From NCBI GenBank assembly GCA_009778155.1, contig WRKI01000349.1:1-34606 (forward strand): 34,606 nucleotides of DNA, in the 5' to 3' direction. Of the stretch, positions 4,304 to 30,556 are shown piece after piece. The DNA comes from Spirochaetota bacterium (GTDB taxonomy: Bacteria; Spirochaetota; Spirochaetia; Treponematales; Breznakiellaceae). The translations under genes were made by a program, and so were the position numbers. The notes under the pieces are model-generated. The model was not told where the DNA came from and made no database searches. It saw only the letters and a program-made list of their open reading frames with translations. The first letter of the stretch is position 1. Every line of letters starts with the position of its first letter.

Positions 4304-5089
4304 ATGGAACGGCTTTACAAGTACCCCCGGACACGGCATATAGCGGGATCGAAGCTTCAAAAGGGGGATGAGGATTTGGAGGCGGCCGCGTTTTCCGAGG
4401 TTGCCGGAAAATTTGTCGTGGTGGAAGAAAAAATCGACGGGGCGAATGCCGGCCTCTCTTTTGCCGGCGGCGAGCTGCGCTTGCAAAGCAGGGGGCATTT
4501 TTTAACCGGCGGCTACAGGGAGCGGCACTTCAACCTTTTGAAAAGGTGGGCGGCCGCGCACTCGGTCGAGCTTTACGATGTTTTGGGGGAGCGTTACATC
4601 ATGTACGGCGAGTGGATGTACGCAAAGCACACGGTCTTTTACGACATTCTGCCCCACTATTTTTTCGAGTTCGACATCTTCGACAAAGAGGGCGAAGTTT
4701 TCCTGTCAACGGAAAAACGACGGCAGATGCTCGCGCCGGTTCCCTTCGTGCAATCCGTGCCCGTTCTTAAAGAGGGCTGCCTTAAAAACGCAGACGAGCT
4801 GGCGGGCTGTTTGGGAAAGTCCTTGTATAAATCAGATGCCTGGCGGCAACGACTACGGGAAATATGCGAGAAAGAAAAACACGACTTCGATTTAGTGATG
4901 AAGCAGTCAGATGATTCGGATTTTGCGGAGGGGCTGTACATCAAGGTTGAGGAAGCCGGGGAAACAGTCCAGCGTTACAAGTTTGTACGAAAAGAATTTA
5001 CCGCGCGTATTTTATCCAGCGACAGCCATTGGCTTGAGCGGCCTATCATCGCCAACTTGCTTGTAAATCCCGGCGTTATGGGGGTGTGA
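4304..5089 (+). CDS. RNA ligase family protein (ATP-dependent polynucleotide ligase)
   Basis: A 261-residue covalent-nucleotidyltransferase ligase. Motif I is EEKIDGAN with the nucleophile Lys at about residue 43. An Arg downstream (QSRGHF, ~63), motif III-like YGEWMYAKHT (~101-110), IIIa FFEFDIFD (~120-127), motif IV EGLYIKVE and motif V RYKFVRKEF complete the adenylyltransferase domain. No large extra domain follows. It seals 5'-phosphate to 3'-hydroxyl ends. I prefer ATG 4304 to 4289 because homologues usually start close to the YKYPRT motif; no clear ribosome site supports either. The next gene, HD-Pnk, begins right after this stop, and supplies exactly the end-healing activities such a ligase needs. 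Confidence 0.82.
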   Translation: MERLYKYPRTRHIAGSKLQKGDEDLEAAAFSEVAGKFVVVEEKIDGANAGLSFAGGELRLQSRGHFLTGGYRERHFNLLKRWAAAHSVELYDVLGERYIMYGEWMYAKHTVFYDILPHYFFEFDIFDKEGEVFLSTEKRRQMLAPVPFVQSVPVLKEGCLKNADELAGCLGKSLYKSDAWRQRLREICEKEKHDFDLVMKQSDDSDFAEGLYIKVEEAGETVQRYKFVRKEFTARILSSDSHWLERPIIANLLVNPGVMGV

Positions 5090-6202
5090 ATGGCCACGCT
5101 AGAACAAATCGAAGGTTATGCCTTTAGCGAATACGATTGGCGGGAACGCTTGCAAAAAACGCCGCAGGAAAAAGAGTATCACGGGGAAGGCGACGTGTGG
5201 ACGCATACAAAACTTGTCATAGAAAATCTTTTGCAAGACGATGACTACGGGCGGCTCCCCGGCGACGCGCAAAAAATTATCCTGTTAGCCGCAATCCTTC
5301 ACGACATTGGAAAACCTTTTTGCACGAAAACGCTAAACGGAAAAATCACCTCCCGGCATCATGCGGTAAGGGGCGCGATGGAAGCGAGGAAGCTGATATA
5401 CAGATACGGCTTTATGGAAGAACTGTTCGGCAGGCTCTCCTTTGCAGAACGCGAACAGGTTTGCTCAATGGTAAGATACCACGGATTGCCGCTAATGTTT
5501 TTGGAAAAGGCCGATACGGAAAAAGCCATATGCCGGGCAAGTCTTGAGGTTAATCCGGAGTACCTGTACATACTTGCAAAGGCCGATGCAAAGGGGCGCA
5601 TCTCTAAAGACAAAAAAAGCAACCTTGAAACAATAGAACTTTTCAAGGAATACTGCACGGAAAACGATTGTTTTACGCAGCCGAAACATTTCCCTAACTC
5701 AAGTGGCAAATTGTTATATTTCAAGGATGCATCGTCGTACACCGGTTACGCGCCTTACGAAAAAGACAAGTTTCCGGTGTATATGATGTGCGGCATTCCC
5801 GCCTCCGGCAAAGACACTTATATAGAAGAAAATCTGGAAGGCATCTCCGTAGTTTCGCTTGACGCTATACGCCAAGAGATGGGCGTTTCGCCGCAGGACA
5901 ATCAAGGGCTTGTCGTGCAGGCGGCAAAGGCGCAGGCGAAAAAACTGCTTGCCAAAAAACAGAGTTTTGTGTGGAACGCGGTAAACATTACGGAAAAGCG
6001 CCGGCGGCCGCTTGTTGATCTTTTTACCGCATACAATGCCTTTGTCGAAGTGATCTACACGGAAGTGCCAGTGCCGGAGCTTTTCCAGCGGAATAAGTTA
6101 CGGGAGCGCACTGTGCCGGAAAACATAATCGAAAAGCTAATCGACACAATGGAAGTGCCTAAGCTGTGGGAAAGCCACCAAGTGCGCTACAGTGTTTGTT
6201 GA
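5090..6202 (+). CDS. HD-Pnk: HD phosphoesterase fused to a 5'-OH polynucleotide kinase
   Basis: A 370-residue two-domain end-healing enzyme. The N-terminal HD domain shows His39 (WTHT), the HD pair His71-Asp72 in ILHDIGKPF, His90/91 (SRHHAVRG), His131 (RYHGLP) and Asp166 (AKADAKGR), as expected for metal-dependent removal of 2',3'-cyclic or 3' phosphates. The C-terminal P-loop kinase has Walker A GIPASGKDT (~235-243), the SLDAIR motif with likely base Asp258 and phosphate-binding Arg261, and an Arg-rich lid (KRRRP). The architecture matches the HD-Pnk family described from Runella slithyformis. The ATG follows the ligase TGA with no gap, so the two genes form a co-translated repair cassette. 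It probably handles broken RNA, possibly DNA. Confidence 0.85.
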   Translation: MATLEQIEGYAFSEYDWRERLQKTPQEKEYHGEGDVWTHTKLVIENLLQDDDYGRLPGDAQKIILLAAILHDIGKPFCTKTLNGKITSRHHAVRGAMEARKLIYRYGFMEELFGRLSFAEREQVCSMVRYHGLPLMFLEKADTEKAICRASLEVNPEYLYILAKADAKGRISKDKKSNLETIELFKEYCTENDCFTQPKHFPNSSGKLLYFKDASSYTGYAPYEKDKFPVYMMCGIPASGKDTYIEENLEGISVVSLDAIRQEMGVSPQDNQGLVVQAAKAQAKKLLAKKQSFVWNAVNITEKRRRPLVDLFTAYNAFVEVIYTEVPVPELFQRNKLRERTVPENIIEKLIDTMEVPKLWESHQVRYSVC

Positions 6203-17580: not shown

Positions 17581-20500
17581 TTAATCAAACTCATTGCTTT
17601 CAAACTTCAGCACATGGCAATTCGTCTTTACAGTTCGTATTAAATCATCTGAAACACCTTCCGGGCAATGAACCTTAATATCCAGAGATACCTCTACTGA
17701 CACTCCAGGCAGTTGGTTAAAGTGCTGCAGTATTTCCGTGTTAATTTGACCGGCGGTTGATCCGAGCTTTGCAGGATCAAGTTTGACACTGCCATAAAAA
17801 TGAGTCGGCTTTGAGCTAGCCGCTTGCTGTGGCTTTATGCCGGGCAAAGATTGTTTGTCATCAAAAAGAAAAGTTTCATGAACTGATGATGCTGAAGTAG
17901 TATGGCCATCATCTGAAACTGGTGTTTCTTTGTTAAGCTGTAATTCGGCAATTTCCGGTTTAACAATAAGAGCGTCCATAGAAAAATGAAGGAACCCGGC
18001 GGAGCCGACAAGCCCCCTATATTTCCCGGCTGCATCAACATCTTCTGCATAATAAAAATATTCGCCAGAGCGGATACCCGCTTCCAATGCCTTTTCAAGA
18101 ACACTCCGGTCTTTAAGCCTGTGCAAATATACATATTGCGTATAATCTGCCCATAATTTTCTGACAGAAACATGATTTTTTTCCTGCCAAAGTTCTTGGC
18201 CTTTTTTTGACATTTCCATTGAAAGAATCTTTGGAGACAGAGATTCTATTAAAAGTTCATCCTGTTTCATTTTTTGGATCGCTTTCATTGAAGGGTTGTT
18301 CATTCCAGAAACCTTCATTTCTTTCAGAATAATCTCGTTTGCACCCTCTTGGACTGGAACAATGAGATGACACCATGCGTTTTGAATAAGCTCGCCAATG
18401 GAACGTTCTTTTTCTGATATTGCTTCATCAGTTTCCTTGCGTTGCGCAGTATCAAGATTTAAAAGGTCAGCATCTTTTTTAATTGATTCCCATGCAAGAA
18501 GCATTTTTGTTTCTTGACGTACATTGGAAAGCAACTCTGAATCCGGGGCTAGAAAAGCGATCATGTTACGGTGAATACGAGAAGAAGAACCGCGTTTTTC
18601 AAGATATTCTTTTGCAATAGACATCGCCAGAGAATTTGCATCATTTGGTTTATGCGACTCTGTAGCCCGGAGCAATACAAGATGAAAGTTTTGATCATCA
18701 GGAATGTCGGCCGATGATTTTACAGCAATATGGGCAAGACAAACAGACACCGGTACTTTGGCCAGTCTTTTTAACTCTGCTTCTACGGTGTCAATAATTG
18801 ATTCCGCTGATTGATGTTGAGTGCGATCTATTACAGTTTTACGAAGAGTCGGCCTAGTATCAAACCAATGACGGTTTTCTGAATGATATAAAAAAGTGAG
18901 ACTGTCTGCTAAAGCCCCCAGAGCGGCTTCATAAGCGGGAATGTTTTCCTCTGGCTGAATTACACCTAAGTATATGCGGCTAGAATCAATGCCACGGTTT
19001 TTTTGAGCACTGCTTGACGGGGCACTGCCTAAAAAAATTGTCCGGGCAATGCGGTTATATGCAAATTGTTTCTTGTAATACCCGCCTTGAGCATCATCAA
19101 GTTTTGCAGGCCTAGCATTTTTACCGTCTATTTCATTTTCAATGATAGGATTCCAGCCGTCTGAAAGATACCGTGTAAGTTCGTCGCGGATTGCAGGTTT
19201 GCCAATCGCAATAGAGCCGCCGGTAATCATTGCGCTGCCATCATTGTTGTCATATAAATCATAGATAACAGAGGCCATTAAGCGCAAAACGCCGCGGGTT
19301 CTTTGAAAGTGGTCTATGCTCGCCCAATCGTTGTAAAGCCTGTCGAAAATTTCCGGGTGAATAGGATAACATCGTTTCAATTTTTCCAGATAGTCTGATT
19401 CCTTGCATTCCGCAGGGAACAGCGACGAATTATTTTGATAGAGTGAAAAAAAAGCTTTACAAGTTCGTTCTACAGCTTCATTGTTTTCAATTGGCTTAAA
19501 AAGACGGCGGCGGACAATCTCGAAACTTTCTTCGGCAACAACCGGCTTCCAAATTGTTTGTATGCGGCCAATTGTTTTTTCGATACTTTGTTCGATACTT
19601 TTTAATGCGATATTTCCAGCTTCGCCGCCTGTCTCCGTTTCTGATTCTGGGATTGACACAACAACAATGCAATTGTTTGTTTTTTTGCTTGCTTCGGTAA
19701 GCTCCTGAAAAAAAGACAAAACATTTGCAAAAGTTCCCGCAGGAATATCCCCATGTTTTGTGTCGTAGAGCTTTCTTACATAAGCTACGAATTCATCAAT
19801 AAGTATAAGGCAGGGGGCGCTTTTTTCCAAAATTGCCTGCAAAGTAGAAGAGCCGGGGGAAATACCTTTTTTGTCTGCATCTTTTATTAAATCGTAAAGC
19901 TTAGGGTCGCCAGATTCTTCTGCAAGCTGGGCGGCCATTTCGCCCCAAAGAGTGTGAACCGTTATGCCGGGAAGCTTCACAGGGCGGCGCGATTTTGTCG
20001 GGTCTAAAGAAGTTCCGACAAGCGCGGCGACTTTTACTTTGGGCATCGCTTTAATATCTATTTCTGATTCGGTAAAAATTTTAGGAACATGGTGAAGTTT
20101 TTCCGGGTTAGCTGAACGCATTAGGTGATACAAAGCCAGCATACTGTGAGTTTTACCGCCGCCGAAAGCGGTTTTAAGCTGAATGACAGGTTCGCCGCCT
20201 TTGCCGCAAACACGCATTGCAGATTTTATCAATAACCCTTTCATGCCATCGGTAATATAAGTGCGGTCAAAAAATTCAACGGGGTCTTGGTATTCGATAA
20301 CTGCTTTCCCGTGCAAAACCTGGGAAAGGTCTGCGGCAAACTCCGCTTGCTGAAACCTGCCGTGGGCTACATCGGGGCGGGGTTCCGCAATTTGCCGCCA
20401 GGGTAGTGCGTAATTCGGCCCCGCAACCGGCGCCGGCCTGACAGCTTTAACAACTACGGTTTTTCCGCTAGGGCCGTCAATTTTAGTTCGCACTTCCCGC

Positions 20501-20931
20501 ATAATTTTTCGTATTGCCCCGGCAATTTCCAAATCGATTGGTTCCATAAAACGAGCCATAGTGTCCAAGGCGCGATAAGCATCGTCCAGATTAAGAGGCT
20601 TTTCTTTTGGATGAGCGATTTTATGTCTGAAGTCAATTATTTCCCTGGCATTTGTTCTTTGCTGTGTTGACACAACATATTTGAAAATATCAAACCAGTT
20701 TATTTCCAGAACTTTTTGGCAGGCCAGAATATCAAGACTGTCTCTGAGCGATTCAAAGGAGCCGGACGACGGCAGATGGTTCTGATAGGTTCCCCCTATT
20801 TTATCAATGACAAATTCATTCCACCAAGAATCTTTGTTCTTTTTTTGCAGTTCCCGGCAAATGAATTCTGCCAAGACAGGACGAATGGTTTCAAAACCGC
20901 GATTAATGTAGTCAGTAGCGTTAAGTGTCAT
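17581..20931 (-). CDS. DUF499 ATPase with N-terminal HEPN (Swt1-like) segment
   Basis: A 1116-residue protein and the last gene of the defence operon. The first ~140 residues look like an all-helical Swt1-type HEPN domain and contain FRHKIAH, an Rx4H motif (102-107) of the kind that forms the active site of HEPN RNases. The ATPase core has Walker A AFGGGKTH (255-262) and Walker B LILIDE (375-380), with SIPESE-type sensor sequence after it. The C-terminal ~80 residues (HFYGSVKLDP...VSLDIKVHCPEGV) match the DUF499 tail. DUF499 proteins accompany DUF1156 methylases and are comparable in place to the PglY/BrxC ATPases of BREX. AGGAGG precedes ATG 20931, 9 bases after the methylase stop. Role inferred: energy-driven control of modification versus attack. 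Confidence 0.82.
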   Translation of the reverse strand: MTLNATDYINRGFETIRPVLAEFICRELQKKNKDSWWNEFVIDKIGGTYQNHLPSSGSFESLRDSLDILACQKVLEINWFDIFKYVVSTQQRTNAREIIDFRHKIAHPKEKPLNLDDAYRALDTMARFMEPIDLEIAGAIRKIMREVRTKIDGPSGKTVVVKAVRPAPVAGPNYALPWRQIAEPRPDVAHGRFQQAEFAADLSQVLHGKAVIEYQDPVEFFDRTYITDGMKGLLIKSAMRVCGKGGEPVIQLKTAFGGGKTHSMLALYHLMRSANPEKLHHVPKIFTESEIDIKAMPKVKVAALVGTSLDPTKSRRPVKLPGITVHTLWGEMAAQLAEESGDPKLYDLIKDADKKGISPGSSTLQAILEKSAPCLILIDEFVAYVRKLYDTKHGDIPAGTFANVLSFFQELTEASKKTNNCIVVVSIPESETETGGEAGNIALKSIEQSIEKTIGRIQTIWKPVVAEESFEIVRRRLFKPIENNEAVERTCKAFFSLYQNNSSLFPAECKESDYLEKLKRCYPIHPEIFDRLYNDWASIDHFQRTRGVLRLMASVIYDLYDNNDGSAMITGGSIAIGKPAIRDELTRYLSDGWNPIIENEIDGKNARPAKLDDAQGGYYKKQFAYNRIARTIFLGSAPSSSAQKNRGIDSSRIYLGVIQPEENIPAYEAALGALADSLTFLYHSENRHWFDTRPTLRKTVIDRTQHQSAESIIDTVEAELKRLAKVPVSVCLAHIAVKSSADIPDDQNFHLVLLRATESHKPNDANSLAMSIAKEYLEKRGSSSRIHRNMIAFLAPDSELLSNVRQETKMLLAWESIKKDADLLNLDTAQRKETDEAISEKERSIGELIQNAWCHLIVPVQEGANEIILKEMKVSGMNNPSMKAIQKMKQDELLIESLSPKILSMEMSKKGQELWQEKNHVSVRKLWADYTQYVYLHRLKDRSVLEKALEAGIRSGEYFYYAEDVDAAGKYRGLVGSAGFLHFSMDALIVKPEIAELQLNKETPVSDDGHTTSASSVHETFLFDDKQSLPGIKPQQAASSKPTHFYGSVKLDPAKLGSTAGQINTEILQHFNQLPGVSVEVSLDIKVHCPEGVSDDLIRTVKTNCHVLKFESNEFD

Positions 20932-20940
20932 AATAGCCTC

Positions 20941-23751
20941 CTAGAAACCTAAATCACCCTGAACTGGGTTAAGCTCTTTTTTAGCTACAGCTTTGGCCGC
21001 TCCTTCCAGCGCGCTCCATGATGCAACTAAATTATTATACGCCAAGGCCTCGTCTGTCAAGCCCTTGCGCTCGCAAATTTGATAGATGCGATACGACAAA
21101 GTTTTGACTTTTTCGATTGTGTCGGCAGGCAGTTTGGCCATAAGTGCCGCGCACTTGTCATTGCCGCCGGCTTCGTCTAAAGCGTGGCATAAATGCTGGA
21201 CAATAGCCCAAACAATGTCAATGCTTTTTATAAACCAATCGAAAGAAAGTTCGCCACGGCGTTTTAGGCGGACTTTTCCGCTTTTTGCTTCGAGTATACC
21301 GGCATCTTTTAATTTTTGCTCGCTTGCCATTAGCGGGCGCATGACGGTGTTGGCATCCCCGTAGGGGCCGTCTTTGAAACCGTACTGTTCAAACCAAGCT
21401 GCGCAAAACTGGCTTTCGCCGTCCAGCGCACCGGATTGTTCGTTTAGGAAGGCATAACGCTCGTGGTTAATCATTTCCAAAGCCTGCCTGACGGAGAGAG
21501 GTTCGCCGGATGCGTCCAGAACCTGCTTGTATTTGGAGTAAACCGAAATGCCAGGGCCGATGGAAGCCTGGGGCAAGTCTACCGGGGCAATGTTTCCCGA
21601 TTGTAAATCGCGCAAACCGATTTTTAGAGCTTCGCGGAGTTCGCCTTGGAATTCTTTGCGAAAAATTTCTGCGGCATTGTCCGGCCGGGGGCGACAGACA
21701 ATTGCAATAGAAGAAGCGAGCGCGTTTGAGTCCAATGAAATAGTCCGACCTGGTCGCTCTGTTCTTAAAGGCCAAGTTCCGGTTATAGAAAAACCTGCCT
21801 TAATGATTGCTTGGAGCATAGTTTCCCAACCTGATGATGTGGTATCTGTATTATCTATATCATCATCAATGTCAGTTTGCTTATAAGCATAGTATATAAT
21901 AAGAGGATAGTTTTGCGATACAGTTTTTCGCATTTGCCTGAACGCTTGCAACATTCCTTCTTCAAAAAATGCTTTTGCTTTGTCTTTTTTCCCGTCAAAA
22001 CGATGAGGCGTTGCGACTAATTCTTCTGCCTTTGGAACAAGCATGGTAGAAAATAATTGCGGGTATACATTTTTGAGAGAGCGGCGCAGCCAAATATAAA
22101 AAAAGTCGGATAAATCGGCATAGCCAATATTGTCGTAATACGGCGGGTCAGTAGAAATAACTATTGGAGATTTGAATGTTAATTGTGTTGCATCTTTTTG
22201 GGTTACACTTGCCGTTTTTAATGCTGGAAGATTAGAAATACATTTAATCATCAAAACAAAATAATTATCAAAGCTACCTGATGAATCAGAAAATAAGTTG
22301 CATTCGGCATAATCCCAAACCATAGGAATTGCTTGTCTGGCAAAAACGCCACGGATTTTATCTCCAATATTTTGCCAACTTGCAAATGAGCAATTTCTAT
22401 CAAGCAATTTATTTACAGCACAAGCCAAATACACCCCCACAGCTTCAGCGTATGCTTTGACTCCTGCGCCGTTTTCATCAAGGCTGCTTGTATCTGTGTT
22501 ATTTTTATAACCAGACGACTGTTTGGCATCTTTTTCAATCTGTGCAATTGCTTCGCTTATTAAATCGCTGAAGGTTACCAAAGCGGTAAGCTGGCGCGGG
22601 GTAAAAAGGTCTGCCCAAGTGAAAAAGCCATACCCCCTGCCACTTACTAAATCGGTAGTATCTCGACTCATTTCTTGTTCAGGTTTCCATTTAGGGATAG
22701 CTGTTTTTACAATTTTTTCGTGCTCATCTAAAGGGGATAAATATACACGATTCTTCGTACCTTCCGCCACAATAGCTATTAGTTTTGCTGTCATACGTCC
22801 AGACATACTTTCATTTTTTATATACTTTTCTCCAGCAATCTGTTTGCATACTTCACAACAAAACTGTGCTCCGCGTCCAACTTTAGGCGAATCTGGCACT
22901 TTGCCTTTTCCTGTTTTAACTTGAAAAGAAACCATTTTACTGTTTTTGTCAACAATAGGTTCTACCCATGCTTCTTTGCCTTTTTTCTTTGAAAGCCAAT
23001 AACTGCTAACTAAAGGCATCTGTGCGCCGCACGCCGGGTTAGGGCATTCCACCGTCCGCGCCCAAAGCCATGCTATTACGGTGGCTTCATGGCTTTTTTC
23101 TGTGGCTGTCGCAGGAACCTGCACTTTTGGGTACAAATGGCCAATTTTATCGTAAGCTTTTTGCCGCATCCATTCGCCGTAGTACCTTACATCTTCGGCA
23201 AGCCCCGCCGCGCTCTTCCATTCAGAAGCCCCGCCGATTTTTCTTTGCGACTCTGGATTTACCGGCGGCCGGTTGGCGAACTTTGGTGGGATTTCTATTA
23301 GCGCCTTGTTGATAAGAACCGCTACCGGGTTAAGATCGCTTGCATGGGCTTCAAGCCCCAGCCGCTGGGCTTCCAAGGGAATGGAACCCCCGCCAGCAAA
23401 TGGATCGAGTATTGGCGGCGGCTTGCCCCCGGCGGAATTTTTTATTTCTTCCCAGGCTTCATTGTAAAGTTTTTCATCCTTGATATTTTCCCATTTTACC
23501 AGCCGTTCAATAATGTTAAAAAGACGCTCGCGTTCTTTTTCCTGCGCCTCCGCCGTAGGAAATTTGTCTTTATCGCTGGAAGGGTCATCCACAAGCGATG
23601 CGAAAAGCACTGCCCGGCAAGCCGCCAACGGCCGGCGCGCCCACCAAAGATGCAATGTAGAAGGATGTCCGTGGCGGATCGATTTTTCACGAGCGGCTTC
23701 GGCATTGATTGCCTCCAAGGGAAGCGCCACTTCGATTAGTTTTTTTTTCAT
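20941..23751 (-). CDS. DUF1156 protein, adenine-specific DNA methyltransferase-like
   Basis: A 936-residue protein. The start (KKLIEVALPLEAINAEAAREKSIRHG, then LHLWWARRPLAACRA) is the DUF1156 domain. The S-adenosylmethionine motif DPFAGGGSIPLEA is at ~116-128, and the amino-methylase motif TDPPYYDN is at ~535-541, in the order of alpha-type N6-adenine methylases with a very long insert between. The insert holds a likely zinc ribbon (CPNPACG near 235 and CCEVC near 297) and a WADLFTPRQLTAL segment typical of the family. It should mark host DNA. ATG 23751 overlaps the upstream stop as ATGA, giving coupling. The insert is AT-rich compared with the ends. The target sequence cannot be read. Confidence 0.85.
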   Translation of the reverse strand: MKKKLIEVALPLEAINAEAAREKSIRHGHPSTLHLWWARRPLAACRAVLFASLVDDPSSDKDKFPTAEAQEKERERLFNIIERLVKWENIKDEKLYNEAWEEIKNSAGGKPPPILDPFAGGGSIPLEAQRLGLEAHASDLNPVAVLINKALIEIPPKFANRPPVNPESQRKIGGASEWKSAAGLAEDVRYYGEWMRQKAYDKIGHLYPKVQVPATATEKSHEATVIAWLWARTVECPNPACGAQMPLVSSYWLSKKKGKEAWVEPIVDKNSKMVSFQVKTGKGKVPDSPKVGRGAQFCCEVCKQIAGEKYIKNESMSGRMTAKLIAIVAEGTKNRVYLSPLDEHEKIVKTAIPKWKPEQEMSRDTTDLVSGRGYGFFTWADLFTPRQLTALVTFSDLISEAIAQIEKDAKQSSGYKNNTDTSSLDENGAGVKAYAEAVGVYLACAVNKLLDRNCSFASWQNIGDKIRGVFARQAIPMVWDYAECNLFSDSSGSFDNYFVLMIKCISNLPALKTASVTQKDATQLTFKSPIVISTDPPYYDNIGYADLSDFFYIWLRRSLKNVYPQLFSTMLVPKAEELVATPHRFDGKKDKAKAFFEEGMLQAFRQMRKTVSQNYPLIIYYAYKQTDIDDDIDNTDTTSSGWETMLQAIIKAGFSITGTWPLRTERPGRTISLDSNALASSIAIVCRPRPDNAAEIFRKEFQGELREALKIGLRDLQSGNIAPVDLPQASIGPGISVYSKYKQVLDASGEPLSVRQALEMINHERYAFLNEQSGALDGESQFCAAWFEQYGFKDGPYGDANTVMRPLMASEQKLKDAGILEAKSGKVRLKRRGELSFDWFIKSIDIVWAIVQHLCHALDEAGGNDKCAALMAKLPADTIEKVKTLSYRIYQICERKGLTDEALAYNNLVASWSALEGAAKAVAKKELNPVQGDLGF

Positions 23752-24644
23752 GCTTGTCCATTCCCCTTGTATTCATCAATGCGTTTTTTCGCCTGTTGAA
23801 TCGCGGCGTTTTGTTCACCGGAGCTTTTCCCGTAAAAACCGCCAATGATTATTTCAGGCGAACTGTCTTTTCGATGTACAAAAAAAATTCTCTGCCCTTC
23901 GCTGTGCATTCGCAGTTCAAGCAAAGAGCCGTATTTTGTATCGGCATCAACAAGACTTTTTACGAGCTTGCTGTCTACCGCATAATTCCTTTCTTTTGCC
24001 CTTTCCATTTTTTGGAAAAAACCAGAATTCTCCCAAAGCTGCGGAGGCGGGGCTGAATTGAGTGCTCCTGTACAAAACGTTGCATTAAATTGATTGCAAA
24101 AACGGTCGGGAATGTTTGAGATTGAATCTATGCAATGTTGTTTTATTATTGAAAGATCACTTTGCCCCCAAAGGTTGTGTAAAATTTCCTGTTGATTTTC
24201 AAACTCAATTTTATCAACACACCAATCTTGTTCTGTTGGGATTGTAAGAGCAATGGCTTTGTTTTTAACAGCCAGTTCAAGCAAGGGAGCCGGAACACCT
24301 AGGGCAGGGGCAGATAAAATCCAGTTTTCTGCCTTAAGAATTTCATCGCTAACAACTATTTTCCCCTGAGAAAAAGAAAGCAATAATAAACGAAGTTTAT
24401 CCCGCTCTGCATTACCTGTTTTGAACATAAGAGAGCCAATGTCAAACTCTCCGTTTTTACTTCTAACAAGAATAAATTTCGATGGCGGCAATTCAACTTC
24501 TGGGTTAGTAGTCTTTGCAGATAAGCTAACGCCGGAGCATTCTTTTTTTAAGCGCAATAATGAGTCCGCCGCCATTACTGCCGAGCGAATACCTTCTTCT
24601 TCGGTTTTAGCCGCGCCGGGAAACGGGTTAAAATATATTTCCAT
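23748..24644 (-). CDS. Uncharacterised protein with C-terminal HigB/RelE (Gp49-like) toxin-type domain
   Basis: A 298-residue protein that I do not recognise as a whole. Residues 1-190 (starting MEIYFNPFPG) match no family I know. Residues ~220-294 follow the Gp49/HigB pattern: a helix, then YGSLLELRM, a strand with a central arginine (GQRIFFVHRK), EIIIGGFYGKS in place of the usual hxHGFxKK, and a closing helix AIQQAKKRIDEY. In toxin-antitoxin pairs this fold cuts mRNA on the ribosome. No separate antitoxin gene is visible. GGGGGG lies 5 bases from ATG 24644; the next gene (methylase) overlaps its stop. The toxin reading is from pattern alone and could instead be a structural or DNA-binding use of the fold. 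Confidence 0.7.
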   Translation of the reverse strand: MEIYFNPFPGAAKTEEEGIRSAVMAADSLLRLKKECSGVSLSAKTTNPEVELPPSKFILVRSKNGEFDIGSLMFKTGNAERDKLRLLLLSFSQGKIVVSDEILKAENWILSAPALGVPAPLLELAVKNKAIALTIPTEQDWCVDKIEFENQQEILHNLWGQSDLSIIKQHCIDSISNIPDRFCNQFNATFCTGALNSAPPPQLWENSGFFQKMERAKERNYAVDSKLVKSLVDADTKYGSLLELRMHSEGQRIFFVHRKDSSPEIIIGGFYGKSSGEQNAAIQQAKKRIDEYKGNGQA

Positions 24645-24655
24645 GACAGCCCCCC

Positions 24656-25681
24656 TTAAATCAACCGCATGAGGTTTTTTTCTGTCTCGTCAAAAAAACC
24701 TTCAGGCCAAAAATCGAGCATACCGTGTTCATCAATATCGGGGCTTTCAACAGTTACTGGCTCTTCGTTGCTGTCATCTGTGGAATCCTTTTTAAAGAAA
24801 AAAGCCTTTACGTCGGCATGATCAATCTTTTTATCTTTTATGGCAATTCTAATGCCATTCATCAAGTGATCTGAATGTGTTTCAACAACAATTTGCACGC
24901 CGCACGCGGCCGCAAGGGCAAGCATTTCGCCAATTTTAGTCTGGCCAGAAGGATGTAAATGAGCTTCAGGGTTTTCAAGCAAGAGTAAAACCGACTCGGT
25001 TTTTTTTGCGGCTAACTGGCTTGCATGGATTAAAATACTGGCTATTACCGGAAGCGTATATGACAATCCAAACCCGACATGAACCGGCCGGTGTTTGTTG
25101 AACACAGTTTGGCCAAGATCGGTATTATTATCGGATTTATATTCAAAATTAATCCCCGGCGAAATAAAACGGAGCCACTCCCTTATGTTTGCATTTACGC
25201 CATTCCCCTCTTTTACAATGAGAGGTCCGGGAATTGTAAGATCATCCCAATCATTGTCAAGCCGTGTGAGAAAATCTACGATATATTCCCCCCGGATGCC
25301 AACGGTTGCAATATCTTTATCAATGCTTAAAGGCAATGATGTTCTTGGCCCCAAACGGTCTGCGGATATATAAGACACAATGCCGCTAAATGCGCTTTTT
25401 CCTTCAAGCTTGCCGCCGCGCTCATAGGAAAAAGCTACGACATCGTTTTCATTTGCCACGATTTGCTCGCACTCAAGGCGGAACCCTTTCATATCGCTTC
25501 TGATATATTGAACAAGGGGGCCAAGCTCTGGAAGCGGTTTCTTTTCTTGTAACAAACGAATTGCCTGAATTACAGAGCTTTTACCGGAGCTGTTTAGTCC
25601 CGACAATATGTTCAACCGGCCTAAATCAAAAACTTCGTCTTCAAAGGCTTTGAAGTTATTTAACGACAGTTTGGAAATCAC
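24656..25681 (-). CDS. AAA/RecF-like ATPase with C-terminal DUF3696
   Basis: A 341-residue SMC/OLD-type ATPase. The start KLSLNNFKAFED, Walker A GLNSSGKSS (28-36), a VGFGLSYTLPVI signature-like segment (202-213), Walker B LLLLENPEAHLHP (232-244) and the ETHSDHLMNGIR switch (268-277) are present. The last 31 residues (GMLDFWPEGFFDETE) are the DUF3696 tail. No TOPRIM nuclease domain follows. The start codon is GTG 25681, overlapping the DUF262 stop as GTGA, with GGAGG 7 bases upstream. Translational coupling to DUF262 implies that the two proteins act together as sensor and effector. Cytoplasmic. Confidence 0.88.
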   Translation of the reverse strand: MISKLSLNNFKAFEDEVFDLGRLNILSGLNSSGKSSVIQAIRLLQEKKPLPELGPLVQYIRSDMKGFRLECEQIVANENDVVAFSYERGGKLEGKSAFSGIVSYISADRLGPRTSLPLSIDKDIATVGIRGEYIVDFLTRLDNDWDDLTIPGPLIVKEGNGVNANIREWLRFISPGINFEYKSDNNTDLGQTVFNKHRPVHVGFGLSYTLPVIASILIHASQLAAKKTESVLLLLENPEAHLHPSGQTKIGEMLALAAACGVQIVVETHSDHLMNGIRIAIKDKKIDHADVKAFFFKKDSTDDSNEEPVTVESPDIDEHGMLDFWPEGFFDETEKNLMRLI

Positions 25682-26892
25682 GAGTTGTCCTCCATTAATA
25701 CTTGCTGAACGATTTTATTTACAATTTCATACCGGCCTTTTATGCCGGATATTTTTAAGCTGTCTTTGCCTATACAGTTGCGCAACATGGAATTGTTACT
25801 ATCAAATTCTGCATCCAGTTTTTTATGCAACAAACTTTTATTTTTTTTCAGTTTTTCAAAATCGCTTTCTGTCATTTTTGCCAATATAACTGTCCATAAT
25901 TCAAAAAGCGATTTGTTGACTGGAGCCCTCTGTTTTCCCCAATCCCTTTTTATCGGTGTTGTAATCCTAAATGCGCAATTTTCAAAAAGCTGCGTTGCCC
26001 TTTCCATTGCCGCCAAAAATTCCTTTTTAAGGCTATCATCGAAGTTACGAGTTGCATTTCGATTTACAGACAAGGGATTATTGTATTTGCTATACGCTTT
26101 GGGTTCAATGGCGCGATTTATTAATTGCATTGTATCAGAAAGGAAAGAATCCATCTCATCGTCTTTTTTATATTCGCTTATGTCAAAAACCATGAACGCA
26201 AAAGAACGTAAAACAAGTTCCTGCGCGGCCATTCGAGAATCCTTCACGCTGTTATCAATTGCGGTTTTGAATTCATTTGTATCAACAAGCTTTTCAAGCA
26301 GTTCGGTAACAGGGCCAAAATACAGGGCGTTTCGTATTTCTTGATCCGTCAATGGAAGCCCTCCGGTATTAAGGCGTTTGAATATGTTCCGCTGTACTTC
26401 TGGCGGGGAATCTGAACCAATGACGGCAAAATCAAGTTCCGTTTCACTTATCCGTATTTGCATTTGCTCTGGTATTTCATCAAAATATTTTCCGTCAAGC
26501 TCTTTCAAAAATTCCAAAGACTCTAGTTTGTATTCTTTTTCCAATACGAATCCCCTAATGGCGCTTAGGCGTTGCAACCCGTCAACAATAAAAAGTTGAT
26601 CATCCTTGGTTTCTGCGGCATAAAATAAAGGCAAGGGGATTTTTAACATTATCGACTCTATCAACCTGCTTTTTCTTCCATCATCCCAAAGGTTTTCACG
26701 TCTCTGTATTGAAGCCGCATGGATCAAGCCCCTGCCCAATCTTCTTATTACGTTTGAAAGAGAAATTTTCCTGTTTGATATGGAAATTTTTCCCGTATCA
26801 AAAGGATATGGCGCGAATACTTCTTCTTCTACACCCGAATTGCTGCCATCGGCTCCCAGTTCCTGCTTAATGGTTTCATCAATATCGTTCAT
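25678..26892 (-). CDS. DUF262 domain protein (GmrS-like, without the HNH half)
   Basis: A 404-residue protein of the DUF262 (ParB/Srx-fold) family seen in type IV restriction enzymes such as GmrSD. It has the LIESIMLKIPLPLFY segment (~77-91), FIVDGLQRLSAI (101-112; the family's DGQQR appears as DGLQR) and FKRLNTGGLPLTDQEIRNAL (171-190). The C-terminal half is helical and lacks the DUF1524 HNH motif, so the protein lacks its own obvious nuclease. The track start 26910 is a TTG overlapping the helicase; ATG 26892 with GAGG 8 bases upstream is the better start and gives a 10-base gap. It pairs with the downstream DUF3696 ATPase. Nucleotide-dependent control is inferred. Confidence 0.85.
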   Translation of the reverse strand: MNDIDETIKQELGADGSNSGVEEEVFAPYPFDTGKISISNRKISLSNVIRRLGRGLIHAASIQRRENLWDDGRKSRLIESIMLKIPLPLFYAAETKDDQLFIVDGLQRLSAIRGFVLEKEYKLESLEFLKELDGKYFDEIPEQMQIRISETELDFAVIGSDSPPEVQRNIFKRLNTGGLPLTDQEIRNALYFGPVTELLEKLVDTNEFKTAIDNSVKDSRMAAQELVLRSFAFMVFDISEYKKDDEMDSFLSDTMQLINRAIEPKAYSKYNNPLSVNRNATRNFDDSLKKEFLAAMERATQLFENCAFRITTPIKRDWGKQRAPVNKSLFELWTVILAKMTESDFEKLKKNKSLLHKKLDAEFDSNNSMLRNCIGKDSLKISGIKGRYEIVNKIVQQVLMEDNS

Positions 26893-26902
26893 TTCCCCCA
26901 CC

Positions 26903-29900
26903 TCATACAATAATTTCCTTCTCCAGGGCTACATGAGCCACCTGGCAAAGTTTCCTTAAATCCAAACTTCGCCTGCTTTCCGCAAAAGACGGTCCGGAAT
27001 CAACCCAATTCGTAAAATATGTAATACTGCGTTTATTGCAATCTACAATTACAACTGCCAAGATAAACTTACCAGGGGTAGTGGCCGCAACTTTCATTTC
27101 ATTATGGGTTACCGTTATGTCGTTTTTCCCGGCTGCCCGGCCTTTTACTTCAATAAACCTTAGAGAGCCTTCCGTGGTTTTGGACTCTATGTCGTATCCA
27201 AGGTTATATTTGCTGACATCTTTGGGTAGATTGCCGGCTTCTTGTTCGATAACGATTACTGTTTGCATAGCTATCCGCTCAATTTCATCCCGGCCTTCTT
27301 CAGTAGTAATTGTCGGTACATCCTGTGTGCTTGAAGGCAACATAGCTCGCGGTACAATCCATGCTCCGCCAAGTATTGCAGGCGGTTTTGATACAATGTT
27401 GCGTTCAAGCGACAATTCGGCAAGGCGTTTATTGCGGCGTATCTCCAAGGCATTGACGCGTTCCCTAAATTTGTCCGCATTAAGGCTGGCATTTGCTTTG
27501 CCCAAAGCCGCTTGGTCTGACATTATGCCTGCCTGAGCATCCCAATAACGTATTTCCGCATTCAGCCTGTTTTTTACTTCCTGCTCAACCTTATTCACAT
27601 AAGCAATACGACGATCCTTCATCTCTTTCAGATGGCTAGGCATAAGATTTGTTACCGCATAATTTTTTGCCAATGTTCCAACATCTTGACCCCACCAAGC
27701 CTTTGATAAAATAAGATTTTGAAGAATGGAATATTCTTCCTGCGAAGGTATGGCATAATCCAGATACGGGGCAAGGCCGGCTGATTCCACTGTTCCGTCT
27801 TTATATATTTCGATAAAGTGCAGGCGGTGAGATGCCTTTACCGGGCGGCCAATGCTATCGATTCGTCCGTCTTCAAGAATGTCCTCCACAAAGAAAAGCA
27901 GCCGGTCTTTTTTACCCGATGCAGTATCATCAATAAAAATAGTTCCTTGTGTAAGAAGACTTTGATTCTTTTCCAGAATTTCACCTATTAACGCGCTAAG
28001 CAACGGATGTCCCGGACAGATCAAAGCTGCATCATCAATACGTCCGTCAACATGGACATATTTTTTTTCAAAGGTTATTGCCTCATAACTTTTGGCTATT
28101 GGGTAGCTAACCCCCATATTGGAACGGCTTTCCCGTAAAATGCGCGGAACATACGGAATTGTATAACGGCGATCAGGACGTTTGCGGATTTGGCCTTTCA
28201 TCTCCTCAAAAGCGCCAATAAAGAAACTTTCGATAAAGTGGGGCTGTAGCCGACGGGCTTCTATGCGTTCCATTGCTTCACGAATTTCATGGACTTGTTC
28301 TATTCCCAGGCTTTGGCCGGCAAGGGAGCGTTCCGCAATGAGTCGTTCCAATTCGCTGCGATCCAGTGCGCCATCGATTGTATTTTCCAGTTTTTCTAGA
28401 ACTTCCGGCTTGTTGCCGTAACGAATCGCTTCGATTAAAAGTTCGCGTAACGGCCTGTCTCCAAAATTCACTTTTCCCAATACGTCAAAAACCTTGCCGC
28501 CCAAAGCTTCTCTTTCCCTGTCCAATTTTTCAAAAAGCCGGGTAAACACATCGCCCTCGCGGGTGTCTTTTGCTACAAGGTTCCACAGATGGCACACGGT
28601 TTTTTGCCCAATCCGGTGAATGCGTCCAAAACGCTGTTCAAGGCGGTTTGGGTTCCAGGGCAAGTCGTAGTTAATCATCAAATGCGCCCGCTGCAGGTTA
28701 ATGCCCTCGCCGGCGGCATCCGTGGCAACCAACACGGAAACATTCTTTTCGTTCTTAAATCGTTCTTCGACCAGTTTTCGTTCTTCCCGCCGCATACCGC
28801 CCTGTATAGTAACCACCGATTCATCATTGGCTAGCATAGAACGGATTCTGTTTGTCAAATATTTTAGCGTGTCTCGGTGTTCGGTAAATATAATTACTTT
28901 TTCCCGGCTTTCCGCATCGAACATAAGGGAATTGTCTTGCAATGTTACGGAAAGTTGTTCCCATTTTTTATCAACCCCGGAATGAAGCAATTGTTTTGCC
29001 TCCAGTTCCAAACTGTTCAATGTATGTATTTCTGTTTCAAGTTCGACTATTGTTTTTGCCGATGTCGCTTCATCAATAAATTGTTCTTCTAAACTGTTGA
29101 TTTCTTCTTCAGAAGCATCTTCGTAATCGTCCCAGTCTTCTTCGGAAAAATCTTTTGCGAAATCTGGCGTTAGGTGCACATCGTGTAAATCTTTCGCCGT
29201 TTGGTAAAATTCCAACTTTTTTTCAAGGCGTTCTCTGCGGCGTTGCAAAGATTGATATATCGCTTCCGGCGATGATGCCAGGCGACGCTGCAAAACTGTG
29301 AGCGCAAAACCTACTGCATGGGCGCGTTTTGGATCAAGAGCTTTTTGCGCCATGTCAAAACCGGTTCTGACATAATCGGTAACTTTTTGGTAAAGCTCCA
29401 TTTCCTGATAAGAAAGTTCATATTTAAGGGTATACGCAAGACGTTCCGGGAATAAGGGTTTGCCTTCAAACGTTAAAAGTTCTTCTTTGACAAGACGGCG
29501 CATAATGTCGCCTGCATTGGTTTCCATTTTGCTTCGATTTTTTCCTTCAAAACGGTCGCCGTCAAGCAAGCGTAAAAATAATTGAAAGTCGTCCTCTTTG
29601 CCGTTATGCGGTGTCGCGGTGAGCAATAAAAAATGCCGTGTTTGTTTTGAAAGCAGTATTCCAAGATTGTACCTTTTTGTATGCTGCTCTTTGTCGCCCG
29701 AAATCGTGGCGGACATTTTATGCGCTTCGTCGCAGATAATAAGGTCCCATTCAGAATGTTCCAGTTTTTTTTGAATTTCTTCGTTTCTTGAAAGTTTATC
29801 CAAACGGGCAATAAGGTAAGGGTGCTGGTTTTCGGCAAAGACATTCCCGCTTCGGGATGATTCCAGCATATCGTTAGTAAGGATTTGAAAATCAAGCTGA

Positions 29901-30421
29901 AACTTGCTGTACAGTTCGTCTTGCCACTGTTCAACAAGATTCCCCGGCGAAACGATGAGGCAGCGGTTTAAGTCTCCGCGCACTATCAGCTCCTTGATAA
30001 AAAGGCCGGACATGATGGTTTTACCCGCGCCGGGGTCATCGGCCAAAAGAAAACGCAAGGGCTGTCTGGGGATCATTTCCTTATAAACGGCTGTTATTTG
30101 GTGAGGCAAAGGCTCGATAAGGGATGTATGCACGGCAAGATGGGGATCAAAAAGATGCGCCAGCTTTATCCTGTATGCTTCGCAAGCAAATTTTACCTTT
30201 GCGGCATTGGCGTCAAATTTCCAGGGCAATCTTTGCGTTTCTATGGAAAGGCCAGCCAAGTCATCTGAATAGAGCAACTGGTTTCCTATGGAGCCGTCAT
30301 TCTTGCGGAAAAACACTTCTATAGCGTCTTCGTTAATGGGCTGGGTTGTTACTATTTGGACAGATTGTCCCGGAATTAGCCCATTTAAACGGTCGCCTTG
30401 CTTTATTATGTGGAAATTCAT
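26903..30421 (-). CDS. SNF2-type helicase with C-terminal DUF3883 domain
   Basis: A 1172-residue protein and the first gene of the defence operon. The helicase core shows motif I ADDPGAGKT (~127-134), DEAH (231-234), TATPHNG (~268-274), VLVATDAAGEGINLQ and QRFGRIHRIGQ, as in HepA/RapA-like SNF2 translocases. A long helical linker follows. The C-terminus has the DUF3883 pattern GYDIES...RFIEVKG with EVK near 1091, which resembles the Asp and Glu-x-Lys of PD-(D/E)XK nucleases. The track start at 30550 adds an Arg-rich stretch translated from intergenic GC repeats; ATG 30421 (MNFHIIKQGDRL) fits homologues. DrmD of DISARM is a comparable SNF2 protein. Role inferred: translocation along, and perhaps cutting of, foreign DNA. 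Confidence 0.85.
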   Translation of the reverse strand: MNFHIIKQGDRLNGLIPGQSVQIVTTQPINEDAIEVFFRKNDGSIGNQLLYSDDLAGLSIETQRLPWKFDANAAKVKFACEAYRIKLAHLFDPHLAVHTSLIEPLPHQITAVYKEMIPRQPLRFLLADDPGAGKTIMSGLFIKELIVRGDLNRCLIVSPGNLVEQWQDELYSKFQLDFQILTNDMLESSRSGNVFAENQHPYLIARLDKLSRNEEIQKKLEHSEWDLIICDEAHKMSATISGDKEQHTKRYNLGILLSKQTRHFLLLTATPHNGKEDDFQLFLRLLDGDRFEGKNRSKMETNAGDIMRRLVKEELLTFEGKPLFPERLAYTLKYELSYQEMELYQKVTDYVRTGFDMAQKALDPKRAHAVGFALTVLQRRLASSPEAIYQSLQRRRERLEKKLEFYQTAKDLHDVHLTPDFAKDFSEEDWDDYEDASEEEINSLEEQFIDEATSAKTIVELETEIHTLNSLELEAKQLLHSGVDKKWEQLSVTLQDNSLMFDAESREKVIIFTEHRDTLKYLTNRIRSMLANDESVVTIQGGMRREERKLVEERFKNEKNVSVLVATDAAGEGINLQRAHLMINYDLPWNPNRLEQRFGRIHRIGQKTVCHLWNLVAKDTREGDVFTRLFEKLDREREALGGKVFDVLGKVNFGDRPLRELLIEAIRYGNKPEVLEKLENTIDGALDRSELERLIAERSLAGQSLGIEQVHEIREAMERIEARRLQPHFIESFFIGAFEEMKGQIRKRPDRRYTIPYVPRILRESRSNMGVSYPIAKSYEAITFEKKYVHVDGRIDDAALICPGHPLLSALIGEILEKNQSLLTQGTIFIDDTASGKKDRLLFFVEDILEDGRIDSIGRPVKASHRLHFIEIYKDGTVESAGLAPYLDYAIPSQEEYSILQNLILSKAWWGQDVGTLAKNYAVTNLMPSHLKEMKDRRIAYVNKVEQEVKNRLNAEIRYWDAQAGIMSDQAALGKANASLNADKFRERVNALEIRRNKRLAELSLERNIVSKPPAILGGAWIVPRAMLPSSTQDVPTITTEEGRDEIERIAMQTVIVIEQEAGNLPKDVSKYNLGYDIESKTTEGSLRFIEVKGRAAGKNDITVTHNEMKVAATTPGKFILAVVIVDCNKRSITYFTNWVDSGPSFAESRRSLDLRKLCQVAHVALEKEIIV

Positions 30422-30429
30422 AAGCCATT

Positions 30430-30465
30430 CAATTCTAGCACAAATCAATAATTTTTGCCAGCCTC
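30430..30465 (-). promoter_or_regulatory. Candidate promoter of the defence operon
   Basis: On the minus strand a TAGAAT lies about 12 bases before the ATG at 30421, and about 18 bases further upstream a CTGGCA matches the -35 consensus at 4 of 6 positions. The transcript would have a leader of only a few bases, in line with the lack of a ribosome site before this ATG. Read-through from the hemerythrin gene is the alternative. Confidence 0.33.
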
Positions 30466-30510
30466 TAGGAGCAAAAAGAGAACCGTAAGTTTTTCTGCGT
30501 CCGATTTTTG

Positions 30511-30556
30511 GCCGCTTCGCCGCCGCGCCGCTTCGCCGGCGAAAGGGCAAAGCGGC
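30511..30556. repeat. GC-rich direct/inverted repeat after the hemerythrin gene
   Basis: GCCGCTTCGCC occurs at 30511-30521 and 30527-30537, and its near-complement GGCAAAGCGGC at 30546-30556, so either copy can form a stem. It lies between the hemerythrin stop and the helicase start. It probably folds into a 3'-end hairpin of the hemerythrin mRNA; there is no U-tract. Confidence 0.5.

What the first reader, a model, noticed from the sequence alone, without database searches (positions are those of the whole stretch)
4304..6202. RNA heal-and-seal cassette: ligase directly followed by HD-Pnk
The ligase has all nucleotidyltransferase motifs and HD-Pnk has complete phosphoesterase and kinase sites, with no gap between genes. 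HD-Pnk enzymes are described (Runella), so the family is known, but the physiological substrate is not. The window also encodes HEPN- and RelE-like candidate RNases, so repair of cut RNA is a tempting but unproven link.
Basis: partly seen in the sequence, partly recalled or inferred. Interest (0 to 1): 0.5.

Follow-up and report, generated by a model that had tools for sequence, protein, structure and literature searches.

The report
Ligase plus HD-Pnk repair gene pair

Summary
Window 4304(or 4289)-5089 encodes a PF09414 RNA-ligase-fold nucleotidyltransferase. Window 5090-6202 encodes HD-Pnk (HD phosphoesterase plus AAA_33 polynucleotide kinase), with the stop and start codons abutting. All expected catalytic residues are present and both AlphaFold models are confident. 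The pair is real and conserved: a full-length ligase of the same family lies upstream on the same strand in 75 of the 80 best genomic HD-Pnk loci, across at least six phyla. It also occurs on plasmids, in jumbo phages and in Deinococcus radiodurans (DRB0100/DRB0098), so the family and the pairing are known. The ligase model is closest to RNA ligases, ahead of all DNA ligases. The HD domain is homologous to that of tRNA CCA-adding enzymes. RNA end healing and sealing is therefore most likely, but the D. radiodurans literature keeps DNA repair open. The proposed RNase-toxin link is not supported: no RNase or defence family recurs among 120 flanking genes, the HEPN domain belongs to an Hma defence protein 11 kb away on the other strand, and no RelE-like gene was found. 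One exception, in two sister cyanobacteria, puts a Card1-like CARF nuclease and a WYL regulator beside the pair. Verdict: a new member of a known kind.

The parts
4304..5089 (+). RNA-ligase-fold nucleotidyltransferase (class A partner of HD-Pnk), single catalytic domain, 261 aa from ATG 4304 (266 aa from ATG 4289)
   Evidence: PF09414 E 1.7e-34; motifs; AlphaFold pLDDT 92.6; Foldseek best hits are RNA ligases
4430..4441 (+). Motif I KIDG; K48 is the predicted lysine-AMP nucleophile
   Evidence: Sequence; K48, D50 and G51 in 99% of 85 homologues
5090..6202 (+). HD-Pnk: N-terminal HD phosphoesterase and C-terminal P-loop 5'-OH polynucleotide kinase, 370 aa
   Evidence: PF01966 and PF13671; AlphaFold pLDDT 95.1; Foldseek best hit to Clostridium thermocellum Pnkp kinase domain
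5147..5674 (+). HD phosphoesterase domain (about residues 20-195), homologous to the HD domain of CCA-adding enzymes
   Evidence: TIGR02692 E 5e-8; 3wfo E 3e-9 by profile; metal-ligand residues
5774..6199 (+). Polynucleotide kinase domain (about residues 229-370), Walker A GIPASGKD
   Evidence: AAA_33; 4gp7, 4jst and 1ltq; Walker A count

Best explanation
The pair is a two-enzyme end-healing and sealing module. The HD domain removes 2',3'-cyclic or 3' phosphates. The kinase domain phosphorylates 5'-OH ends. The ligase then seals the resulting 3'-OH and 5'-PO4 ends through a K48-AMP intermediate. RNA broken by metal-independent cleavage (for example tRNA or rRNA) is the most likely substrate. 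It is an accessory, probably horizontally acquired function in this species. Domain content, active sites, fold and genomic pairing are shown here; the reaction sequence is inferred from characterised relatives; the RNA substrate and physiological trigger are inference.
For: Complete active sites in both proteins. Conserved ligase-then-HD-Pnk order in 75 of 80 genomic loci, median gap about 0 nt. The AlphaFold ligase model's best PDB matches are Naegleria Rnl, TbREL1, archaeal Rnl and T4 Rnl2 (E 1e-8 to 1e-6); the first DNA ligase with a DNA complex is at rank 33, E 2.5e-5. The HD domain is homologous to that of CCA-adding enzymes, which act on tRNA 3' ends. Megaphages carry the pair, in one case with a 2H (2'-5' RNA ligase superfamily) phosphoesterase close by. 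RtcB lies within 5 kb in 3 of 80 loci. From memory, not read here: Munir and Shuman 2017 showed that Runella HD-Pnk phosphorylates 5'-OH ends and removes 2',3'-cyclic, 3' and 2' phosphates from RNA and 3' phosphate from DNA, and that its gene is often in an operon with a putative ligase.
Against: The nearest studied relative, D. radiodurans DRB0098-DRB0100, is radiation-induced and was long classed as DNA repair. [quoted passage not shown] A later review reports ligase activity only with DRB0098 and PprA, and loss of DNA damage tolerance on deletion (PMC5128194). Runella HD-Pnk also heals DNA ends (memory). No flanking gene identifies a substrate.
Confidence: 0.68

Rival explanations
1. A DNA strand-break repair pair: HD-Pnk cleans 3'-PO4/5'-OH DNA ends and the ligase seals nicks, perhaps with a recruiting partner, as proposed for the D. 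radiodurans LigB operon.
For: D. radiodurans operon is radiation-induced and its loss lowers DNA damage tolerance (PMC1997131, PMC5128194). The Deinococcus QL22 locus has uracil-DNA glycosylase, dinB and spore photoproduct lyase genes nearby. Runella HD-Pnk acts on DNA 3' phosphate (memory).
Against: Ligase model matches RNA ligases first and has no added DNA-binding or OB-fold domain. D. radiodurans carries the divergent class B ligase. DNA-repair genes do not recur beside the cassette elsewhere.
Confidence: 0.2
2. An antidote that repairs RNA cut by the cell's own or rival RNase defence systems (HEPN, CARF nucleases, tRNases), that is, an immunity-linked repair module.
For: In two sister cyanobacteria a Card1-like CARF-PDDEXK nuclease gene lies divergent to a WYL regulator, ligase, HD-Pnk array. 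Megaphages carry the pair. The window has an Hma island with an intact HEPN motif 11 kb away.
Against: The Card1/WYL link is one lineage. No RNase-toxin or defence family recurs in 120 flanking genes. The Hma island is separated by about 10 kb of metabolic genes on the other strand.
Confidence: 0.12

Closest known systems
Runella slithyformis HD-Pnk (Munir and Shuman 2017, from memory; paper not held)
   Same: N-terminal HD phosphoesterase plus C-terminal P-loop polynucleotide kinase; reported as often encoded with a putative ATP-dependent ligase
   Different: Sequence not compared directly here; its native substrate is equally unknown
Deinococcus radiodurans DRB0100 / DRB0099 / DRB0098
   Same: Ligase followed by HD-Pnk (L045); HD-Pnk 26% identical to the window protein
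   Different: Ligase is of the divergent class B; a TIGR02452/PARG gene lies between the two (DRB0099); the window has no such gene
Class A ligase plus HD-Pnk pairs in Pseudomonas, Variovorax, Achromobacter and cyanobacteria
   Same: Same ligase class (about 50% identity) and same order
   Different: HD-Pnk only 33-44% identical; window protein sits on a long, unresolved branch
Bacterial Pnkp-Hen1 (TIGR04075/TIGR04074)
   Same: End-healing and sealing; homologous kinase domain
   Different: Calcineurin-type phosphatase and ligase fused in one 850-aa protein, with Hen1; a separate copy exists elsewhere in this genome

Membership tests
HD-Pnk | N-terminal HD domain and C-terminal AAA_33 / Pnk-type P-loop kinase in one protein of about 370-410 aa | tested here: met
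HD-Pnk | HD metal-ligand residues (H39, H71-D72, D166) and flanking H31, H91 | tested here: met
   98-100% conserved and present
HD-Pnk | Kinase residues: P-loop K241, D258, R261, R305, R338 | tested here: met
   Invariant in 92 homologues; Walker A ends in D rather than S/T, as in 58 of 92 (29 more have N)
HD-Pnk | 5'-OH kinase and 2',3'-phosphoesterase activities | not testable with these tools
   Needs purified protein
PF09414 RNA ligase (covalent nucleotidyltransferase superfamily) | Motifs I (KxDG), III, IV (EG) and V (K-x-V-R) | tested here: met
PF09414 RNA ligase (covalent nucleotidyltransferase superfamily) | Fold closer to RNA ligases than to DNA ligases | tested here: met
   Foldseek ranks 1-32 are RNA ligases apart from one putative Aquifex ligase (2 chains); DNA ligases from rank 33. 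TM-scores are moderate (0.40-0.55 on the query length)
PF09414 RNA ligase (covalent nucleotidyltransferase superfamily) | Seals RNA | not testable with these tools
   DRB0100, a class B relative, was inactive alone (PMC1997131)
D. radiodurans LigB-type operon | TIGR02452/PARG gene between ligase and HD-Pnk | tested here: not met
   Ligase and HD-Pnk abut in the window; PARG found only in L045 among the loci searched
Pnkp-Hen1 RNA repair system | Pnkp with calcineurin-type phosphatase and fused ligase, plus Hen1 | tested here: not met
   Window protein matches only the kinase segment of TIGR04075, 33 bits against a 750-bit cut-off
RNase-toxin-linked repair module | Recurrent linkage to RNase toxins or defence genes | tested here: not met
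   Gene-neighbourhood level only; genome-wide co-occurrence not tested

The most novel reading that the evidence does not exclude
The ligase/HD-Pnk pair repairs RNA cut by CARF- or HEPN-type immune nucleases, acting as a built-in recovery system for the host (or counter-defence when carried by a jumbo phage), with the cyanobacterial Card1-WYL-ligase-HD-Pnk cluster as the diagnostic case.
Probability: 0.1. Interest if true: 0.6.

Novelty: new member of a known kind. Interest (0 to 1): 0.27.

Why it matters
The substrate of HD-Pnk cassettes has been open since their first description. The genomic survey shows that the ligase is an almost constant partner, that two ligase subfamilies fill the same slot, and that the HD domain shares ancestry with the tRNA CCA enzyme. 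These make RNA versus DNA repair directly testable with the pair rather than with HD-Pnk alone.

Tried and rejected
RNase-toxin linkage: rejected at neighbourhood level. A third conserved operon partner: none; clustering of flanking ORFs gave only lineage-specific groups and common superfamilies. Many weak HD-Pnk hits in the window's order and in 37 viral contigs matched only the HD part. One viral example checked is a CCA tRNA nucleotidyltransferase with an HD domain, so these were not counted as HD-Pnk. RelE-like gene: none found; the 89-aa ORF at 2257-2526 overlaps the SpoU gene on the other strand and matches no family. tRNA-linked insertion: no tRNA gene in the window and almost none near other copies. 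A within-genus co-occurrence test in Pseudomonas could not be run because the tool does not accept that centre.

Full report
Observation. The window carries two abutting genes on the + strand. The first (ATG 4289 or, better supported by homologue starts, ATG 4304, to 5089) encodes a 261-266 aa protein that matches PF09414 RNA_ligase at E 1.7e-34. The second (5090-6202) encodes a 370 aa protein with an HD domain (PF01966) and a polynucleotide-kinase-type P-loop domain (PF13671). The ligase stop codon TGA is followed at once by the HD-Pnk ATG. The catalytic residues are present: ligase motif I EEKIDG, motif III E108, motif IV EG and motif V KFVR are conserved in 99-100% of 85 homologues at their key positions, and the HD and kinase residues in 98-100% of 92.

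Structure. AlphaFold2 models are confident: pLDDT 92.6 for the ligase and 95.1 for HD-Pnk. No solved structure is close in sequence to the ligase. By fold, the best matches are Naegleria gruberi Rnl, trypanosome REL1, archaeal RNA ligases and T4 Rnl2; DNA ligases appear from rank 33 with E-values about a thousand times worse than the best. TM-scores are moderate, so this is kinship of the nucleotidyltransferase core, not identity. The protein has no OB-fold or other accessory domain. The HD-Pnk kinase domain is closest to Clostridium thermocellum Pnkp and to the T4 and mammalian polynucleotide kinases. The HD domain aligns with the HD domain of CCA- and A-adding tRNA nucleotidyltransferases; weak HD-only hits in phages include a genuine CCA enzyme.

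Is the pair real? A full-length ligase of the same superfamily lies upstream on the same strand in 75, and a ligase fragment in one more. The median spacing is 0 nt for class A and -4 nt for class B (that tally includes the plasmid, phage and window copies). The sampled organisms include Cyanobacteriota, Bacteroidota, Pseudomonadota, Bacillota, Planctomycetota, Chloroflexota and Acidobacteriota, as well as plasmids. Two ligase subfamilies fill the slot: class A (window type, mostly 40-56% identical to the window ligase) and class B (DRB0100 type, about 20-24% identical); profile comparison shows that they are homologous. On the HD-Pnk tree the class changes at least four times, although several branches are weak. 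Selection of the best 80 favours HD-Pnks like the query, so 75 of 80 should not be read as the family-wide rate.

Viruses. Eleven viral contigs (17 to 597 kb, nine of them over 130 kb) encode full HD-Pnk, and seven of them have a ligase within 4 kb, not always adjacent; two of the seven look alike in this region. A 462-kb uncultured phage has the class B pair directly adjacent (L047). One viral locus has a 2H phosphoesterase (2'-5' RNA ligase superfamily) close by. This fits RNA repair, as described for jumbo phages in PMC7824862.

Context in the window's genome. Of 40 genomes of the genus, only the window's own has a full-length HD-Pnk; of 244 in the order, likewise only one. Most relatives read keep the neighbouring SpoU and AI-2E genes but show no cassette within the 1.5 kb beyond AI-2E. 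The cassette is thus an accessory gene pair, probably gained by transfer; its donor is unresolved. The same genome also encodes a Pnkp-Hen1 operon and two RtcB-family proteins, so three separate RNA end-repair kits coexist.

The RNase link. The HEPN domain is real (PF18731, RHKIAH) and belongs to HmaC of an Hma defence system at 17581-30550. That island is 11 kb away, on the other strand, behind thiolase, keto-acid and other metabolism genes. No RelE-like protein was found. Among 120 nearest flanking genes of cassette loci, no PADLOC family matched more than two genes and no RNase-toxin family recurred. The exception is a Card1-like CARF-PDDEXK nuclease gene plus a WYL regulator in two sister cyanobacteria (L060, L064), one evolutionary event. 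RtcB lies nearby in three loci. Genome-wide co-occurrence was not tested.

Mechanism. From homology, HD-Pnk converts 2',3'-cyclic or 3' phosphates to OH and 5'-OH to 5'-PO4, and the ligase seals. Runella HD-Pnk was shown to do the healing steps on RNA and, for 3'-phosphate, on DNA (Munir and Shuman 2017, from memory; the paper is not in the library). RNA is favoured by ligase fold, by the kinship of the HD domain to a tRNA enzyme and by the phage context. DNA is favoured by the D. radiodurans operon, which is radiation-induced (PMC1997131) and needed for DNA damage tolerance (PMC5128194); there DRB0100 alone sealed neither DNA nor RNA. The RNA reading is put at about two in three.

Verdict. 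The finding is sound but belongs to a known kind. Details added here are the quantified pairing, the two interchangeable ligase classes, the family-wide GK[D/N] Walker A and the single Card1/WYL association. None of them makes this window's copy exceptional.

Noticed in passing
window 5090-6202 and L033-L128: The HD-Pnk Walker A motif ends GK[D/N] in 87 of 92 homologues instead of the canonical GK[S/T]; only five (two Deinococcus, one Vibrio, Chitinimonas, one myxobacterium) keep S/T. The Mg-coordinating residue may differ in this kinase family.
   Followed up: partly
L060:3118-7059 and L064:1934-7059: In two sister cyanobacteria a Card1-like CARF-PDDEXK nuclease gene is divergent from a WYL regulator followed by the ligase and HD-Pnk genes.
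   Followed up: partly
G000 contig C283 (L159:5662-9572), C196 (L160), C228 (L161): The window's genome also has a complete Hen1-Pnkp operon and two RtcB-family genes, so three RNA end-repair systems coexist in one genome.
   Followed up: partly
window 17581-30550: Hma defence system (HmaA, HmaB, HmaC) with an NsnA/NsnB/(weak NsnC) set lying inside it, between hmaA and hmaB: one defence system nested in another.
   Followed up: no
L047:1-9644: A 462-kb uncultured phage carries the pair beside a PARP-catalytic protein and a major-vault-protein-like protein (MVP shoulder, Band 7).
   Followed up: partly
L093:4613-4975: A tmRNA gene lies just upstream of the ligase in a planctomycete copy of the cassette.
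   Followed up: no
L159:1128-3485: A 785-aa CCA tRNA nucleotidyltransferase-like ORF with an unannotated N-terminal extension of about 320 residues lies upstream of the Hen1-Pnkp operon.
   Followed up: no
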